Assembly: GCA_001627335.1 (NCBI GenBank)
Contig: LUPK01000038.1
Location: 42,612 to 106,611 of the forward strand
Reading direction: 5' to 3'
DNA from: Nocardioides sp. REDSEA-S33_B3
GTDB lineage: Bacteria; Actinomycetota; Actinomycetes; Propionibacteriales; Nocardioidaceae
DNA: 64,000 nucleotides
Part shown: positions 15,504-62,245 of the stretch, piece after piece
Layout: every line of letters begins with the position of its first letter
Position numbering within the stretch: position 1 is the stretch's first letter
Notes under the pieces: generated by a model
Told to the model about the DNA's origin: nothing
Seen by the model: only the letters and a program-made list of their open reading frames with translations
Databases searched by the model: none
Position numbers and translations under genes: made by a program

Positions 15504-15607
15504 GGTGGTCGAGCAGCGAGCGTCAGCGAGCGGGCGTCGAGACCCTTCCGGTGAGGGTGGTCTCGACGCTCGCCTCGTCGCTGGCGCTCCTCGGCTGCTC
15601 GACCACC
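15504..15607. repeat. Composite palindromic element (family A), two inverted 38-bp-type units
   Basis: Begins GGTGGTCGAGCAGCGAGCG and ends CTGCTCGACCACC. It holds one 38-bp unit (15507-15544, GGTCGAG to GAGACC) and a diverged inverted copy after a short spacer, so the whole can fold into a long hairpin. The unit recurs at 22729 and, inverted and inside a gene, at 40900. Confidence 0.8.
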
Positions 15608-22725: not shown

Positions 22726-22830
22726 GGTGGTCGAGCAGCGAGCGCCAGCGAGCGCGCGTCGAGACTGCCGGGCTGAGGCGGTTGGTCTCGACGCCCGTTC
22801 GTCGCTGGCGCTCCTCACTGCTCGACCACC
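22726..22830. repeat. Composite palindromic element (family A)
   Basis: Starts GGTGGTCGAGCAGCGAGCG and ends ACTGCTCGACCACC, with an inverted second half. Same 38-bp unit as 15507 (here 22729-22766) with few changes. It fills most of the gap between the amidotransferase and the flavin monooxygenase and can fold into a long hairpin. Confidence 0.8.
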
Positions 22831-34502: not shown

Positions 34503-34634
34503 TGGTCGAGGTGCGAAGGCCGCCAGGCCTGAGCCTCGAGACCCGGCTGCGATCGGCGACGACGCCGGCGTACGGCGCCGCGGACCCTCACCGGGTCTCG
34601 AGGCTCGTCGCTGGCGCTCCTCGCACCTCGACCA
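34503..34634. repeat. Nested palindromic element between fadA and fadB
   Basis: Outer ends TGGTCGAGGTGCGA and TCGCACCTCGACCA pair; inside, GAGCCTCGAGACCCGG pairs perfectly with CCGGGTCTCGAGGCTC. The 132-bp element therefore folds into one long stem with a loop, in the middle of an operon. Its ends belong to the GGTCGAG/CTCGACC group. Confidence 0.8.
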
Positions 34635-34668
34635 CCGACCTGAGACCGAACAGGAACCCAGAACAGAC

Positions 34669-39374: not shown

Positions 39375-39418
39375 GGTGGTCCCGACGCCCGCTCGCTGGC
39401 GCTCACTGCTCGACCACC
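39375..39418. repeat. Palindromic element (family A), truncated copy
   Basis: GGTGGTC at the left and GACCACC at the right enclose CGACGCCCGCTCGCTGGCGC, matching the inverted 38-bp unit but with the left side disrupted (CCCGACG in place of CTCGACG). A CGTCGCGGG/CCCGCGACG hairpin follows at 39457-39478. Confidence 0.65.
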
Positions 39419-39505: not shown

Positions 39506-40786
39506 ATGGACTTCGCACCGTCTTCCCGGGCCGCCGACCTCACCGAGCGCACCCGGGCGTTCATCCGCGACGTGGTCGAGCCCGTGGAGGGCGACTACCT
39601 CCGCGACCTGGCCGAGCAGCGGCGTACCGGCGACCCGTGGCGACCGCTGCCGGTCGTCGAGGAGCTCAAGGCCGAGGCCAGGGCACGTGGCCTGTGGAAC
39701 CTGTGGCTGCCGAAGGAGCACGCGGGGGAGTACGCCGCACGCTTCGGCACCGACGGGGGCGAGGGCCTGACCAACGTCGACTACGCCCCGGTCGCCGAGG
39801 CCACCGGCGGCAGCCACCTCGCGCCCCTGGTGATGAACTGCAACGCGCCCGACACCGGCAACATGGAGGTGCTGCTGCGCTACGGAACCGACGAGCAGCG
39901 GGCGCAGTGGCTGGAGCCGCTGCTGGCCGGCGAGATCCGCTCGGCGTTCACGATGACCGAGCCCGACGTCGCGTCCTCCGACGCCACCAACATGGAGGCG
40001 ACCGCCGTGGTCCACGGCGACGAGGTGGTCATCAACGGCCGCAAGTGGTGGTCGACCGGCGTGGGGCACCCCGAGTGCCGGATCGCGGTCTTCATGGGCC
40101 TGCGCGACACCCCGGAGAACCTCGAGGACGACCCCGGCATCGACCGCCACCACCGGCACACGATGGTGCTGGTCCCGCTGGACACCCCCGGGGTGAAGGT
40201 CGAGCGGCTGCTGCCGACGATGGGGATGTACGACGAGCCCATCGGCCACGGGGAGGTCTCGTTCACCGACGTCCGCGTCCCCGTCAGCAACATTCTGTCC
40301 GGCCCCGGTGAGGCGTTCGCGATCGCCCAGGGACGGCTCGGGCCCGGCCGCATCCACCACTGCATGCGGCTCATCGGGCTGGCCGAGATGGCGCTGGAGC
40401 GGGCCTGCCGCCGCGGGCTGGACCGCGTGGCCTTCGGCAAGCCGCTGGCCAACCTCGGCGGCAACCGCGAGCGGATCGCCGACGCCCGGATCGCCATCGA
40501 GCAGGCCCGCCTGCTGGTCCTCAACGCCGCGTGGAAGCTCGACGTCGGAGGCCCGCTCAACGCGCTCTCGGAGGTCTCGCAGATCAAGGTCGCGGTGCCG
40601 CGGATGGCGCTGCAGGTCATCGACTTCGCGATGCAGATCCACGGCGGTGGCGGGATGTCCGACGACCACCCGCTGGCCGGCGCCTGGACCGCCGCCCGCG
40701 CGCTGCGGCTGGCCGACGGCCCCGACGAGGTGCACCAGGGCGTCGTGGCGCGCCTGGAGCTCGGCAAGTACGGGGCGAAGCGATGA
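39506..40786 (+). CDS. Acyl-CoA dehydrogenase, ACAD10/11 (LvaC)-like
   Basis: 426-residue flavoenzyme. SAFTMTEPDVASSDATNMEA is the FAD/substrate loop of the family, INGRKWWSTG follows, and the C-terminal ADGPDEVHQGVVARLEL is the DGPDEVH variant found in the ACAD10/ACAD11-like branch rather than the GTSEIQ type of classical enzymes. In that branch the enzyme acts together with an APH-type kinase on 4-hydroxyacyl-CoAs. Here the kinase-like gene is two genes downstream, with a short-chain dehydrogenase between. The SDR start overlaps the stop (ATGA). Otherwise a general acyl-CoA dehydrogenase of FadE type. Confidence 0.88.
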   Translation: MDFAPSSRAADLTERTRAFIRDVVEPVEGDYLRDLAEQRRTGDPWRPLPVVEELKAEARARGLWNLWLPKEHAGEYAARFGTDGGEGLTNVDYAPVAEATGGSHLAPLVMNCNAPDTGNMEVLLRYGTDEQRAQWLEPLLAGEIRSAFTMTEPDVASSDATNMEATAVVHGDEVVINGRKWWSTGVGHPECRIAVFMGLRDTPENLEDDPGIDRHHRHTMVLVPLDTPGVKVERLLPTMGMYDEPIGHGEVSFTDVRVPVSNILSGPGEAFAIAQGRLGPGRIHHCMRLIGLAEMALERACRRGLDRVAFGKPLANLGGNRERIADARIAIEQARLLVLNAAWKLDVGGPLNALSEVSQIKVAVPRMALQVIDFAMQIHGGGGMSDDHPLAGAWTAARALRLADGPDEVHQGVVARLELGKYGAKR

Positions 40787-41613
40787 GCGCCGCCGACGGC
40801 CGCAGGGTCCTGATCACCGGCGCGGCCTCCGGGCTCGGCGCCGCGCTGGCCGACGCGTTCGAGGCACGGGGGGACCGGGTGCTGCGGACGGATCGGACCG
40901 GTCTCGACGCCCGCTCGCTGGCGCTCGCTGCTCGACCGGCTGTGCTGCGTCTCGACATCACCTCCGACGAGGACTGGGCCGCCGCGCTCGCGCACGTCGA
41001 GGAGACGTGGGGCGGGCTGGACGTGCTGGTCAACAACGCCGGGGTCGCCGGTGGCGGCCGGCTCGACGTGGCCACCCACGACGAGTGGCAGTGGATCTTC
41101 GACATCAACCTGTTCGGCATGGTGCGCGGGCTGCGCACCTTCGTGCCGATGCTCAAGCAGCAGGGGTCGGGCGCGATCGTCAACGTCGCGAGCCTCGCCG
41201 GGCTCGTGCACCCCGCGGGCATGGCGTCCTACAACGCAGTCAAGGCCGCGGTCGTCGCGCTCACCGAGACCGCCGGGCACGAGCTGGCCGCCCACGGCGT
41301 CACCGCGCACACGGTCTGTCCGGGCTTCTTCCGCACCAACCTGATGGACTCGCTGCAGGGCGCCGACTCCGCCCTCGGCGAGGTGATGTCCCGCCTGGTC
41401 ACCGACTCACCGATCACCGCCGAGTCGGTCGCCGCGGCCGTGCTCGCCGGGCTGGACGCCGGCGACGAGCTGATCGTGCCCGACGAGCCGGCACGGGGAG
41501 CGGTCGCGCTCAAGCAGACCGACCGGGCGTCGTACGACGCGGTGATGCGGGCGCAGGCGCGCAGTCTCGACAAGCTGGCCGGCGAGACAACGGACGCAGG
41601 GGCAGAGCAGTGA
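40783..41613 (+). CDS. Short-chain dehydrogenase/reductase
   Basis: 276-residue classical SDR. Cofactor loop VLITGAASGLGAALADAFEA, NNAG in VLVNNAGVAGGG, catalytic Ser in NVASLAG and YNAVK as the YxxxK pair. It oxidises or reduces a hydroxyl/keto group with NAD(P), probably on an acyl-CoA of this cluster (as LvaD does in the levulinate pathway). Residues 40-52 (TGLDARSLALAARP) are encoded by a 38-bp palindromic repeat lying between the second beta strand and the usual acidic D(I/V) motif, a place where SDR length varies. Coupled at both ends by 4-bp overlaps. Confidence 0.9.
   Translation: MSAADGRRVLITGAASGLGAALADAFEARGDRVLRTDRTGLDARSLALAARPAVLRLDITSDEDWAAALAHVEETWGGLDVLVNNAGVAGGGRLDVATHDEWQWIFDINLFGMVRGLRTFVPMLKQQGSGAIVNVASLAGLVHPAGMASYNAVKAAVVALTETAGHELAAHGVTAHTVCPGFFRTNLMDSLQGADSALGEVMSRLVTDSPITAESVAAAVLAGLDAGDELIVPDEPARGAVALKQTDRASYDAVMRAQARSLDKLAGETTDAGAEQ
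40900..40937 (-). repeat. Complete 38-bp palindromic unit inside the SDR gene
   Basis: Reads GGTCTCGACGCCCGCTCGCT at the left and ends CTGCTCGACC. As its reverse complement it matches the intergenic unit at 15507-15544 at 37 of 38 positions. The reading frame continues through it. Confidence 0.85.
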
Positions 41614-58609: not shown

Positions 58610-60267
58610 GCGACACCGTCACCGAGGCGGCGGCCGAGGAGGCCGCTGCGCCCACCCACCGCGAGGCGATGCTGGAGAAGATCGCCGCGCTGCACGCCGA
58701 GCAGGCCAAGGCGATCGCCGGCGGCGGGGAGAAGTCCGTCGCCCGCCACCACGCCCGCGGCAAGCTGCTGCCCCGCGAGCGCATCGAGCTGCTCATCGAC
58801 GAGGGCACCGCGTTCCTCGAGCTGTCCCCACTGGCCGCGTGGGGCTCGGACTTCCCGGTCGGCGCCAGCGTCGTCACCGGCATCGGCGTCGTCGAGGGCG
58901 TCGAGGTGATGATCAGCGCCAACGACCCGTCGGTGAAGGGCGGCGCCTCGAACCCGTGGACGGTCAAGAAGATCTTCCGAGCCGCCCAGATCGCCCAGGA
59001 GAACGGGCTGCCCACGGTCTCGCTGGTGGAGTCGGGCGGCGCGGACCTGCCGACGCAGAAGGAGATCTTCATCCCCGGCGGCAAGCTGTTCCGCGACCTC
59101 ACCCGGGCCAGCGCCCGCAAGGAGCCGACGGTCGCGCTGGTCTTCGGCAACTCCACCGCGGGCGGCGCCTACGTGCCCGGCATGAGCGACTACACCGTGA
59201 TGGTGAAGGAGCAGGCCAAGGTCTTCCTCGGCGGTCCGCCGCTGGTGAAGATGGCCACCGGTGAGGAGTCCGACGACGAGTCGCTCGGCGGCGCCGAGAT
59301 GCACGCCCGGGTCTCCGGCCTGGCCGACTACCTCGCCGAGGACGAGCGCGACGCCATCCGGATCGGTCGTCGCATCATCGCCCGCCTCAACCGGGAGCGG
59401 CGTGGGACGTCATACGGGCAGGACGTCCCCTCCAGCGCAACGTATGACGTCCCGGCGGTCGCACCGGCGTACGCCGAGCCCGACGCCGATCCCGAAGGCC
59501 TGCTCGACCTGATCCCCTCCGACCTCAAGGAGCCCTTCGACCCCCGCGAGGTCATCGCGCGGGTCGTCGACGGGGTCAGCCCCCGCAACGGGGTGGCCTT
59601 CGACGAGTTCAAGCCGCTCTACGGCACCTCACTGGTCACCGGCTGGGCGCGCATCCACGGGCAGCCGGTCGGCATCCTGGCCAACGCCCAGGGCGTGCTG
59701 TTCAGCGAGGAGGCCCAGAAGGCCACGCAGTTCGTCCAGCTGGCCAACCAGTCCGACACCCCGCTGCTGTTCCTGCACAACACGACCGGCTACATGGTCG
59801 GCAAGGAGTACGAGCAGGGCGGGATCATCAAGCACGGCGCGATGATGATCAACGCGATCTCCAACTCCACGGTGCCGCACCTCACCGTGATCATGGGCGC
59901 CTCCTACGGCGCCGGCAACTACGGCATGAACGGCCGCGCCTACGACCCGCGCTTCCTGTTCACCTGGCCCTCGGCCAAGTCCGCGGTCATGGGGCCGGCG
60001 CAGCTCGCGGGCGTCCTCGAGATCGTCGCGAAGCAGTCCGCGGAGTCCAAGGGCGAGGTGTTCGACGCCGAGGGCTTCGCCGGCATCAAGCAGATGGTGG
60101 AGGCCCAGGTCGAGGAGCAGTCGCTGCCGTTCTTCCTCTCGGGGATGTTGTACGACGACGGCGTCATCGACCCGCGCGACACCCGCTCGATCCTCGGCAT
60201 CTGCCTGTCCGTCATCCGCAACAAGCCGATCGTCGGCACCGACCGATTCGGAGTCTTCCGGCCATGA
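58606..60267 (+). CDS. Acyl-CoA carboxylase beta (carboxyltransferase) subunit
   Basis: 553-residue carboxyltransferase with two crotonase-like halves. N-half: ARGKLLPRERIELLIDEGTA, VESGGADLPTQ, FGNSTAGGAYVPGMSDYT, VFLGGPPLVKMATGEE. C-half: GILANAQGVLFSEEAQKATQ, LHNTTGYMVGKEYEQGGIIK, MGASYGAGNYGMNGRAYDPR. These match the methylcrotonyl/geranyl-CoA carboxylase beta group more than propionyl- or acetyl-CoA types. It moves carboxyl from biotin to the acyl-CoA. A 50-bp palindromic element at 59404-59453 is translated in the variable linker between the halves (RRGTSYGQDVPSSATYDVPA). Coupled to both neighbours by 4-bp overlaps. Confidence 0.92.
   Translation: MSDTVTEAAAEEAAAPTHREAMLEKIAALHAEQAKAIAGGGEKSVARHHARGKLLPRERIELLIDEGTAFLELSPLAAWGSDFPVGASVVTGIGVVEGVEVMISANDPSVKGGASNPWTVKKIFRAAQIAQENGLPTVSLVESGGADLPTQKEIFIPGGKLFRDLTRASARKEPTVALVFGNSTAGGAYVPGMSDYTVMVKEQAKVFLGGPPLVKMATGEESDDESLGGAEMHARVSGLADYLAEDERDAIRIGRRIIARLNRERRGTSYGQDVPSSATYDVPAVAPAYAEPDADPEGLLDLIPSDLKEPFDPREVIARVVDGVSPRNGVAFDEFKPLYGTSLVTGWARIHGQPVGILANAQGVLFSEEAQKATQFVQLANQSDTPLLFLHNTTGYMVGKEYEQGGIIKHGAMMINAISNSTVPHLTVIMGASYGAGNYGMNGRAYDPRFLFTWPSAKSAVMGPAQLAGVLEIVAKQSAESKGEVFDAEGFAGIKQMVEAQVEEQSLPFFLSGMLYDDGVIDPRDTRSILGICLSVIRNKPIVGTDRFGVFRP
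59404..59453. repeat. 50-bp palindromic element inside the carboxyltransferase gene
   Basis: Perfect 13-bp arms GGGACGTCATACG (59404-59416) and CGTATGACGTCCC (59441-59453) with a 24-base loop that itself contains GGACGTCCCC. It is in frame within the inter-domain linker. Comparatively AT-rich for its surroundings. Confidence 0.75.
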
Positions 60268-62216
60268 TCAACAGACTGCTGGTCGCCAACCGCGCCGAGA
60301 TCGCCAGCCGCGTGTTCCGCACCTGCCGCCGGCTGGGCATCGAGACCGTCGCGATCCACTCCGACGCCGACGCGGGCCTGCCCTACGTGGCCGAGGCCGA
60401 CACCGCCGTACGCCTGCCCGGCAACACGCCCGGCGAGACCTACCTGCGCGCCGACCTGGCCATCGAGGCCGCGAGGAAGGCCGGGGCCGACGCGATCCAC
60501 CCGGGCTACGGCTTCCTGTCCGAGAACGCCGACTTCGCCCAGGCCGTCGTCGACGCCGGGCTGACGTGGGTCGGCCCGGACCCGTCGTCCATCACCTCGA
60601 TGGGCTCGAAGATCGGCGCCAAGGAGCTGATGAAGTCAGCCGGCGTCCCGATCCTGGAGGCGCCGGAGTCACCGACCGAGGCCGACCTGCCGCTCCTGGT
60701 GAAGGCGTCGGCGGGCGGCGGCGGTCGCGGCATGCGCATCGTCCGCGCGCTCGCCGACCTCGAGACCGAGATCAGGAGGGCGCGCGAGGAGGCGGCGTCG
60801 GCGTTCGGCGACGGCACCGTCTTCGTCGAGCCGTACGTCGAGCGCGGCCGGCACGTCGAGGTCCAGGTCGTCGGCGACGGCGCGGGCGACGTCCTGGTGC
60901 TGGGGGAGCGCGACTGCTCGATCCAGCGTCGCCACCAGAAGGTCGTCGAGGAGGCGCCCGCGCCGGCGCTGCCGCAGGCGACCCGCGAGGCGCTGCACGA
61001 GGCCGCCCGCGCCGCTGCCGCGGCCATCGACTACCGCGGCGCCGGCACCGTGGAGTTCCTCTACGACGAGGACGCCGACCGGTTCTTCTTCCTGGAGATG
61101 AACACCCGGCTCCAGGTCGAGCACCCGGTCACCGAGCTGGTGCACGGCGTGGACCTGGTCGAGATGCAGCTGGCCGTCGCCGAGGGCCGTGGTCTCGGCG
61201 CCCGCTCCGGGCCGGCGGTCGAGGAGGTTGCTCTGCAACCGTCTCGAGACCCCGTCGGGCCCCAGGGCCACGCGATCGAGGTCCGCCTCTACGCCGAGGA
61301 CCCGGCGGCGGACTACCAGCCGCAGTCGGGCGTCCTGACGACGTTCGAGGTCCCCGACGAGCCCGGGGTCCGGGTCGACGGGGGCTTCGTGACCGGCAGC
61401 GAGGTGTCGACGTTCTACGACGCGATGCTGGCCAAGGTGATGGTGCACGCGCCGTCGCGCGAGCAGGCCTGCCGCCAGCTGGCGGGGGTGCTGCGGCGTA
61501 CCCGCATCCACGGCCTGGTCACCAACCGGGACCAGCTCGTCGCGATCCTCACCGACCCCGACTTCGTGGCGGGCCGCGTGAGCACGGCGTTCCTCACCGA
61601 GTGGGCACCGCCGACCCGGGACGCCGACTCCGACGCCCCGCTCGCGGCCGCGCTCGCCATCGCCGAGACGCAGCGGGCCGCGCGGACGGTCCAGCAGCGC
61701 ATCCCGGTGGCGTTCCGCAACGTGCCGAGCCAGCCGCAGCGTACGGAGTTCGAGGGTGATCTCTCCGCCGAGTGGTGGGGCGGCCGGGACGGCTACAGCG
61801 CCGAGGGCGTCGTGGTCCTCGCGGCGGCGCCGGACGCGGTCACGATCGAGCGGGACGGTGTCGCGACGACGTACGCCTGCCGCGTCACCGGCCTGCCGGG
61901 GCGCGAGACCGTCGACGTCGACGCGCCGTCGGGCTACCGCCGGCTGGTGCGGGTGCCCCGGTTCCTCGACCCGTCCGAGCAGGTCGCGAGCGGATCGCTG
62001 CTCGCGCCGATGCCGGGCAGCGTGGTGAAGGTGCTCGTGGAGCAGGGCCAGCAGGTCGCCGCAGGCGACCCGGTGCTGGTGCTGGAGGCGATGAAGATGC
62101 AGCACACGGTGAGCGCGCCGACCGACGGCGTCGTCAGCCGACTCGAAGTGGCGCCCGGGACGCAGGTCGCGGCGGGCGAGGTCATGGCAGTGGTCGAGGA
62201 GAACACCGGTGGTTGA
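60264..62216 (+). CDS. Acyl-CoA carboxylase alpha subunit (biotin carboxylase + biotin carrier)
   Basis: 650-residue biotin-dependent subunit. Biotin carboxylase: RLLVANRAEIASRVFRTCRR, AIHPGYGFLSENADFAQA, ATP-grasp loop KASAGGGGRGMRIV, ERDCSIQRRHQKVVEEAPAP, LEMNTRLQVEHPVTE. The C-terminal carrier has biotinyl Lys611 in LEAMKMQHT. It carboxylates biotin with bicarbonate and ATP and serves the beta subunit encoded just upstream. Residues about 318-331 (VEEVALQPSRDPVG) come from a 35-bp palindromic repeat inserted before the conserved GHAIEVRLYAEDP. A second copy at 62211 supplies the stop codon. ATG overlaps the beta-subunit stop. Confidence 0.93.
   Translation: MINRLLVANRAEIASRVFRTCRRLGIETVAIHSDADAGLPYVAEADTAVRLPGNTPGETYLRADLAIEAARKAGADAIHPGYGFLSENADFAQAVVDAGLTWVGPDPSSITSMGSKIGAKELMKSAGVPILEAPESPTEADLPLLVKASAGGGGRGMRIVRALADLETEIRRAREEAASAFGDGTVFVEPYVERGRHVEVQVVGDGAGDVLVLGERDCSIQRRHQKVVEEAPAPALPQATREALHEAARAAAAAIDYRGAGTVEFLYDEDADRFFFLEMNTRLQVEHPVTELVHGVDLVEMQLAVAEGRGLGARSGPAVEEVALQPSRDPVGPQGHAIEVRLYAEDPAADYQPQSGVLTTFEVPDEPGVRVDGGFVTGSEVSTFYDAMLAKVMVHAPSREQACRQLAGVLRRTRIHGLVTNRDQLVAILTDPDFVAGRVSTAFLTEWAPPTRDADSDAPLAAALAIAETQRAARTVQQRIPVAFRNVPSQPQRTEFEGDLSAEWWGGRDGYSAEGVVVLAAAPDAVTIERDGVATTYACRVTGLPGRETVDVDAPSGYRRLVRVPRFLDPSEQVASGSLLAPMPGSVVKVLVEQGQQVAAGDPVLVLEAMKMQHTVSAPTDGVVSRLEVAPGTQVAAGEVMAVVEENTGG
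61217..61251 (+). repeat. 35-bp palindromic element (family B) inside the carboxylase alpha gene
   Basis: GGTCGAGGAGGTTGC, centre TCT, GCAACCGTCTCGAGACC. It differs from the intergenic copy at 49194 at only a few bases. Translated in frame in a variable loop of the biotin carboxylase domain. Confidence 0.85.
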
Positions 62217-62245
62217 GGAGGTCGCGCAGCGACCGTCTCGAAACC
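62211..62245 (+). repeat. 35-bp palindromic element (family B) providing the alpha-subunit stop
   Basis: GGTTGAGGAGGTCGC, centre GCA, GCGACCGTCTCGAAACC. The TGA stop of the carboxylase alpha gene (62214-62216) is part of the element, and its right end lies 20 bp before the next start. Confidence 0.85.

What the first reader, a model, noticed from the sequence alone, without database searches (positions are those of the whole stretch)
40900..40937. Intergenic palindromic unit inserted in frame in a dehydrogenase gene
A 38-bp unit that forms half of the intergenic hairpins at 15504 and 22726 is found, 37/38 identical in reverse orientation to 15507-15544, inside the SDR gene, where it encodes TGLDARSLALAARP between the cofactor strand and the LDI motif. 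The frame is intact and the site is a variable loop. This parallels Rickettsia palindromic elements (RPEs), a rare case of selfish repeats that enter genes and are translated.
Basis: partly seen in the sequence, partly recalled or inferred. Interest (0 to 1): 0.72.

Follow-up and report, generated by a model that had tools for sequence, protein, structure and literature searches.

The report
Palindromic repeats translated in protein loops
In a bacterium that is likely a Nocardioides, a short palindromic DNA repeat scattered between genes also lies in frame inside a dehydrogenase gene, and related units lie in frame in about ten other genes, where they are predicted to be translated as extra loop residues; other species carry different units of this kind in the same loop of the dehydrogenase.

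Summary
Window 40900-40937 matches the reverse complement of 15507-15544 at 37 of 38 bases. The 38-mer (up to 3 mismatches) occurs 12 times in this genome, 6 of them exact, and in 0 of 119 other genomes sampled from the family. It is lineage-specific repeat DNA, in frame at SDR residues 40-52.

It is not a one-off. Of 73 repeat units examined in this genome, 16 lie inside genes, 14 of them clearly in frame. A second, nearly complete genome repeats this: 12 of 60. The SDR loop holds different units in other species, shown in DNA. Loops or linkers of four more proteins (VWA, biotin carboxylase type, CydDC, E2) also carry unit-like inserts in other species, read mostly from protein translations.

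The system works like Rickettsia palindromic elements and like intragenic REPs (PMC3733652). It fits neither family by the features tested: GTAG/CGTC tag absent, length too short for an RPE, no RAYT in 59 genomes. What seems new is the actinobacterial family and the repeated filling of the same loops. Translation and mobility are inferred.

The parts
40783..41613 (+). SDR (short-chain dehydrogenase) gene that holds the unit; 276 aa
   Evidence: Pfam adh_short 1.1e-47
40900..40937 (+). 38-bp palindromic unit in frame, encodes residues 40-52 (GLDARSLALAARP)
15507..15544 (-). intergenic 38-bp unit, half of an inverted pair
15559..15604 (+). longer variant unit, other half of the pair
22729..22766 (-). 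intergenic 38-bp unit (2 mismatches), half of an inverted pair
22784..22827 (+). longer variant unit, other half of the pair
34594..34636 (+). related unit; not among the units called inside or at the edge of a gene
39378..39415 (+). 38-bp unit (2 mismatches) upstream of an acyl-CoA dehydrogenase-like coding stretch (name by reading)
60264..62216 (+). biotin carboxylase-type gene (650 aa; name by reading) with a second in-frame unit
61217..61251 (-). 35-bp unit read in frame as AVEEVALQPSRDP (residues 318-330; 61215-61253)
62211..62245 (-). 35-bp unit that supplies the TGA stop codon (62214-62216) of the biotin carboxylase-type gene

Best explanation
A 38-bp palindromic unit repeated across this likely Nocardioides genome lies in frame in an SDR gene, where it is predicted to be translated into 13 extra residues of a surface loop and likely arrived as a copy of a selfish, REP-like repeat. 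Shown: the unit family, its copy number, its lineage specificity, the open frame, other units of the same family in the same loop of other species, and in-gene positions for about a fifth of the units examined in two genomes. Inferred: translation, copying by an unknown enzyme, and loss of insertions that break genes. Most units of this genome have no stop in any of the six frames (60 of 75), so an insertion whose net length is a multiple of three costs only a loop extension. It survives where the protein tolerates one: the beta2-beta3 loop of the SDR, the TMD-NBD linker of CydDC, E2 linkers, and loops of a VWA protein and a biotin carboxylase-type protein. Such loops would be filled again by whichever unit type amplifies in a lineage, and tandem duplication with a period divisible by three then lengthens them (1, 2 or 3 units in CydDC relatives).
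For: Identity and copies. Lineage-specific 38-mer: 1 of 120 family genomes, the own one. Generic ends GTGGTYTCGAS-N13-40-CTCRACCAC in 43 of 196 order genomes, up to 120 copies, against 1 control match in all. SDR relatives: 73 of 121 with a loop of 9 residues or fewer, 48 longer; at least 25 changes between insert and none on a tree built without the loop; near rows of the query carry a different insert (P0006) or none (P0008). Of the inserted residues counted against majority columns, 454 of 458 lie at residues 38-44. DNA at the SDR site in other species shows units of the family, with a whole inverted pair in G003; in 5 of 9 genomes further copies of the same insert type are listed. In-gene units: 16 of 73 (14 clear) in the own genome and 12 of 60 in G003. 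Other loops. AlphaFold2 (mean pLDDT 82.7) puts the insert between strands at 32-37 and 55-56, with a short helix 43-48.
Against: No protein evidence: translation is read from open frames only. No mobilising enzyme was found: PF01797 in 0 of 59 genomes. No clear target-site duplication: matches near expectation, except 3-mers after a 3-base trim (6 against 2.3 in G000, 12 against 3.9 in G003) and 4-mers after a 1-base trim in G003 (3 against 0.9), which tandem arrays may explain. All six frames open is common in this G+C-rich DNA (38% of random window 42-mers), and in G003 only 7 of 77 units are open in all six, 70 in five, so the units need not be built to be read. Distant SDRs have a native helix in this place, so part of the length variation may be loss of native residues. 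My gene caller needs one open frame, so the in-frame share among gene hits is biased upward; frame-breaking insertions were looked for only in five tight same-strand cases.
Confidence: 0.87

Rival explanations
1. The loop residues are native (the helix that other SDRs have here) and the DNA match is coincidence or codon-bias convergence.
For: Distant SDRs have a segment of similar length here, and the model makes residues 43-48 a helix.
Against: 38 of 38 bases are shared with five other places of the genome; 73 of 121 listed relatives have a short loop; other species carry other repeat units there.
Confidence: 0.02
2. The units are kept as working DNA or RNA sites (terminators, hairpins that protect messages, or binding sites of a chromosome protein), and gene copies are by-products or work as sites too.
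For: Of 52 intergenic units 33 lie between tandem, 14 between convergent and 5 between divergent genes, as described for REPs (PMC3733652, section 15); the segment with the inverted pair in L077 folds at -78.6 kcal/mol.
Against: The 38-mer is private to one lineage and some genomes of the genus have no match to the generic pattern; in-gene copies run in both orientations and several frames.
Confidence: 0.25
3. Units spread by recombination among resident copies (gene conversion, unit swapping) rather than by insertion into empty sites.
For: The query and P0006 have different units although only 0.026 apart on the tree without the loop, and both continue with AVL after the unit; no RAYT.
Against: The first occupation of a loop still needs an insertion; DNA of P0006-P0008 was not available to check the junctions.
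Confidence: 0.2

Closest known systems
Rickettsia palindromic elements (RPE) and Wolbachia palindromic elements
   Same: Palindromic repeats found between genes and in frame inside unrelated genes, at exposed sites (passages of PMC10969869, PMC3767692, PMC4224334, PMC2229807).
   Different: RPEs are about 100-150 bp; these units are 28-47 bp by the motif, in actinobacterial DNA of 73% G+C, and are read in several frames and both orientations.
GTAG and CGTC REPs, with intragenic copies (Di Nocera 2013, PMC3733652)
   Same: 20-40-bp palindromes, dimers and tandem groups, mostly between tandem or convergent genes, some inside genes and proposed to sit in loops or linkers, some supplying stop codons.
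   Different: Terminal tag absent, no RAYT found (CGTC REPs also lack a dedicated transposase by that paper). Its main text does not name Actinobacteria or Nocardioides (its figures, which list species, are not held). It reports one same-site case (recB of two Xanthomonas) and otherwise different sites; here the same loop is filled again by different units.
REPINs with RAYT transposases
   Same: Short palindromes, part of them in inverted pairs; lineage-specific sequence (PMC3116915, passages).
   Different: No Y1 transposase in 59 genus genomes; only 7 of 15 and 12 of 31 neighbouring pairs are inverted.
Mycobacterial interspersed repetitive units (recalled)
   Same: Actinobacterial short repeats that can run in frame with genes.
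   Different: Not compared by sequence here; the one search on them gave only a listing.

Membership tests
Rickettsia palindromic element (RPE) | In-frame copies inside unrelated genes as well as intergenic copies | tested here: met
Rickettsia palindromic element (RPE) | Length of about 100-150 bp | tested here: not met
   units 28-47 bp by the strict motif; inverted pairs about 94-99 bp
Rickettsia palindromic element (RPE) | Inserted residues are translated and the protein works | not testable with these tools
   no protein data
GTAG REP | Unpaired terminal GTAG motif (or its listed degenerate forms) | tested here: not met
   ends are GTGGTY..RACCACCG and the GTGG can pair with CCAC; GTGG replaces GTAG in most O. 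terrae GTAG-20 units by the paper, but here it is part of the stem
GTAG REP / REPIN | RAYT tyrosine transposase in the genome or genus | tested here: not met
   PF01797 in 0 of 59 genomes; 5 of 14 control genomes positive
CGTC REP | Terminal CGTC/TGTC/CCTC motif with an 8-9-bp stem | tested here: not met
   ends as above; definition from PMC3733652 section 6
MITE | Target-site duplication | tested here: inconclusive
   near expectation except 3-mers after a 3-base trim (6 against 2.3; 12 against 3.9) and 4-mers after a 1-base trim in G003 (3 against 0.9)
Any curated RNA family | Rfam match in the window | tested here: not met
   0 matches at gathering score

The most novel reading that the evidence does not exclude
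Certain protein loops in Nocardioides act as docking sites for a family of palindromic repeats. Once a loop holds a unit, recombination at the shared ends swaps in whichever unit is spreading, so a genus-wide repeat family continually rewrites the same loops of the SDR, VWA, biotin carboxylase, CydDC and E2 proteins and supplies new peptide segments on a short time scale.
Probability: 0.22. Interest if true: 0.82.

Novelty: new variant of a known kind. Interest (0 to 1): 0.62.

Why it matters
Repeats that enter genes and stay readable were first described as a feature of Rickettsia and Wolbachia, with later REP cases in other groups. Here a genus of actinobacteria with cultured species shows it for about one in five of the units examined in two genomes, including core enzymes, with recurrent use of the same loop. 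This makes two open questions testable in named strains: whether such inserts are translated and harmless, and what moves short palindromes in genomes without a RAYT.

Tried and rejected
RAYT/REPIN origin: PF01797 gave 0 of 59 genomes. Known RNA family: Rfam gave no match in the window. Coincidence of codons: rejected by the exact multi-copy match. Broken genes: the 5 same-strand units with gaps under 45 bases on both sides separate different genes by reading, not halves of one gene. Target-site duplication: no clear signal. A built-in lack of stops: not special, since 34-38% of random window segments are open in all six frames.

First attempts that failed: the regular expressions missed 111 of 120 VWA and 90 of 120 CydD rows, so both were redone by alignment. 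In one search the PSBD-catalytic linker search gave no segment in 22 of 30 rows. In one search my sorting of long SDR loops by regular expression put look-alike loops into different classes (P0022 and P0031 in C, P0108 in D), so the typed count of 35 changes is rough; the insert-or-none count of 25 does not depend on it. One search printed L029 on the wrong strand first; the plus-strand frame in the same call is the one used.

Literature: 10 searches. For Nocardioides with palindromic, interspersed or inverted repeats I saw no paper on this repeat family in the listings; two searches returned 0 papers.

Full report
What is there. Window 40900-40937 is GGTCTCGACGCCCGCTCGCTGGCGCTCGCTGCTCGACC. 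It is 37 of 38 identical to the reverse complement of 15507-15544 and lies in frame in an SDR gene (40783-41613, Pfam adh_short 1.1e-47). It encodes residues 40-52, GLDARSLALAARP, shortly after the aspartate that ends the second beta strand (strand 32-37 in the model). Named relatives are mostly Nocardioides, so the genome is likely a Nocardioides, in draft form (3.55 Mb, 61 contigs, 87.7% complete).

It is repeat DNA. The own genome holds 12 copies of the 38-mer with up to 3 mismatches (6 exact), none for the reversed control. A loose pattern that also takes the longer variant gives 25. BLAST gives 45 matches for these two types and 59 for a wider set of related units, each with only 40 of 150 or 158 first-look candidates scored, so totals are likely lower bounds. 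The 38-mer was found in 1 of 120 genomes of the family, the own one. The generic ends GTGGTYTCGAS...CTCRACCAC occur in 43 of 196 genomes of the order, up to 120 copies in one, against 1 control match in all; high counts are confined to the window's genus and three other genera of its family, with single matches elsewhere. So lineages seem to have their own unit types under a common end design.

The SDR loop is a recurrent site. Of 121 rows (the query and the 120 best-listed of 2559 hits), 73 have a loop of 9 residues or fewer and 48 a longer one. By regular expression I sorted the longer ones into four rough classes (6 A, 18 B, 10 C, 5 D) and 9 unassigned; the sorting put some look-alike loops into different classes. 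On a tree built without the loop (16 of 118 inner branches starred), the state changes at least 25 times between insert and none, and 35 times by rough type; gain and loss cannot be told apart. The nearest other row of the query, P0006, carries a different insert, and P0008 none. Between the ends that I trimmed, 454 of 458 inserted residues fall at residues 38-44. DNA from other genomes shows family units at this place: N. szechwanensis (L089), N. sp. 503 (L090), N. lijunqiniae (L093), a reversed unit in G021 (L065), and a complete inverted pair in G003 (L077) whose segment folds at -78.6 kcal/mol. In a search of nine such genomes with eight joined inserts, all nine had 84-197 matches. Further copies of the genome's own insert type are listed for G003, G009, G021, G023 and G080. 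For the other four the capped listing does not show them, and the insert of one of these (G082) was not in the query.

It is not the only gene. A strict end motif found 73 distinct units with enough flank in 109 partly overlapping loci of the own genome. With a simple codon-usage gene caller 52 are intergenic (33 tandem, 14 convergent, 5 divergent), 5 overlap a gene end and 16 lie inside a gene. Two of the 16 are doubtful (L005 near a start, L024 near an end). A stricter flank test gave 12 of 73 and missed the SDR unit itself. The clear 14 lie in eleven proteins: the SDR, a VWA protein, a protein with APS kinase and LMW phosphatase domains (2 units), a membrane thioredoxin, a DUF222-like protein, a beta-propeller protein, CydDC, a MiaB-like protein with repeated AVEERAPASGGS, the biotin carboxylase-type protein of this window, a kinase-like protein and an E2 acyltransferase (3 units). 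An FHA protein with a less perfect unit makes twelve. Pfam supports SDR, VWA_2, ABC_membrane with ABC_tran, Thioredoxin, Beta_propel, APS_kinase with LMWPc, and FHA; CydD is the name in the sources; DUF222, MiaB, kinase, biotin carboxylase and E2 are names by reading. The 5 same-strand intergenic units with tight gaps separate different genes. The caller needs an open frame, so a broken gene could be missed.

Replication. In G003 (main contig 4.08 Mb, 99% complete) the generic pattern finds 61 units. I analysed 60: 44 intergenic, 4 at gene edges, 12 inside ten genes, all in one open frame. The SDR and the VWA protein are among the ten, and both are among the twelve of the own genome. With 3500 genes assumed, the chance of two or more shared is 0.0005 (post hoc).

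Other loops. VWA: 74 of 120 relatives have 43-47 residues in the slice, while others carry what I read as unit translations, such as VVEEGALRPSRN or GRSSSERQGASSRPR; in G003 the unit is seen in DNA. CydDC: 77 of 120 slices have 78-82 residues; P0242-P0262, most of which show unit-like text, reach 89-126, but a few without it also reach 91-99. Copies of the VVEQRGAPATSG unit are one in P0242 (98% identical), two in the query and three in P0247. Biotin carboxylase type: 5 of 26 aligned relatives have inserts that I read as unit translations (L232, L233, L236, L239, L251), at the place of window 61215-61253. E2: of 29 relatives one, G013 (L258), shows a unit by DNA motif in a linker. So five of the five proteins for which I compared relatives show it, E2 weakly; seven others were not compared.

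How it likely works. Units have conserved ends and continue with ACCG on one side (base +3 C in 73 of 75 and 76 of 77; +4 G in 55 of 75 and 77 of 77); part of them come in inverted pairs (7 of 15 and 12 of 31 neighbouring pairs). 60 of 75 own units are open in all six frames, but so are 34-38% of random window segments, and in G003 only 7 of 77 are. Inference: copies are made by an unknown enzyme; those that break a gene are lost; those that add whole codons to a tolerant loop stay. Distant SDRs have a native segment of similar length at this place, and the model draws residues 43-48 as a helix, so the unit may by luck refill a shortened segment.

What it is and is not. It works like RPEs, reported at 44 places in R. 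conorii with nearly half in genes (PMC10969869, passage), and like intragenic REPs (PMC3733652). It is not a GTAG or CGTC REP by its ends, and no RAYT was found in 59 genomes. The main text of PMC3733652 has no mention of Actinobacteria or Nocardioides, but its figures, which list species and phyla, are not held, so actinobacterial cases there cannot be excluded. It reports one case of different REPs at about the same site (recB of two Xanthomonas) and otherwise different sites. The recurrent use of the same loops across a genus is the part that I did not find in print, within the 10 searches listed.

Noticed in passing
window 62211-62245: A unit at the 3' end of the biotin carboxylase-type gene supplies its TGA stop codon (62214-62216); REP ends that give stop codons are described in PMC3733652.
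   Followed up: partly
L019 (G000 contig C7): APS kinase and LMW phosphatase domains are joined in one frame through a linker made of two units; the repeat may have fused two genes. Relatives were not checked.
   Followed up: no
G000 contigs C7 and C60: Units look clustered: 12 of the 45 matches are on C7 (92 kb), and 10 of the 59 on C60 (52 kb), in a genome of 3.55 Mb; no test was made.
   Followed up: no
G003:C1:2913027-2913381, 1196800-1196944 and 2025096-2025427: Tandem arrays of units with periods 63, 54 and 59 bp; one search lists none of them inside a gene.
   Followed up: partly
L126-L159, SDR homologues: Distant SDRs have a longer native segment between strands 2 and 3 that most Nocardioides relatives lack; the clade seems to have shortened the loop before or while units filled it.
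   Followed up: partly
L183 and L179 (G000 contigs C10 and C45): A unit forms the C-terminal tail of a membrane-type protein (L183), and a MiaB-like protein (name by reading) holds tandem 36-bp units in frame (L179).
   Followed up: no
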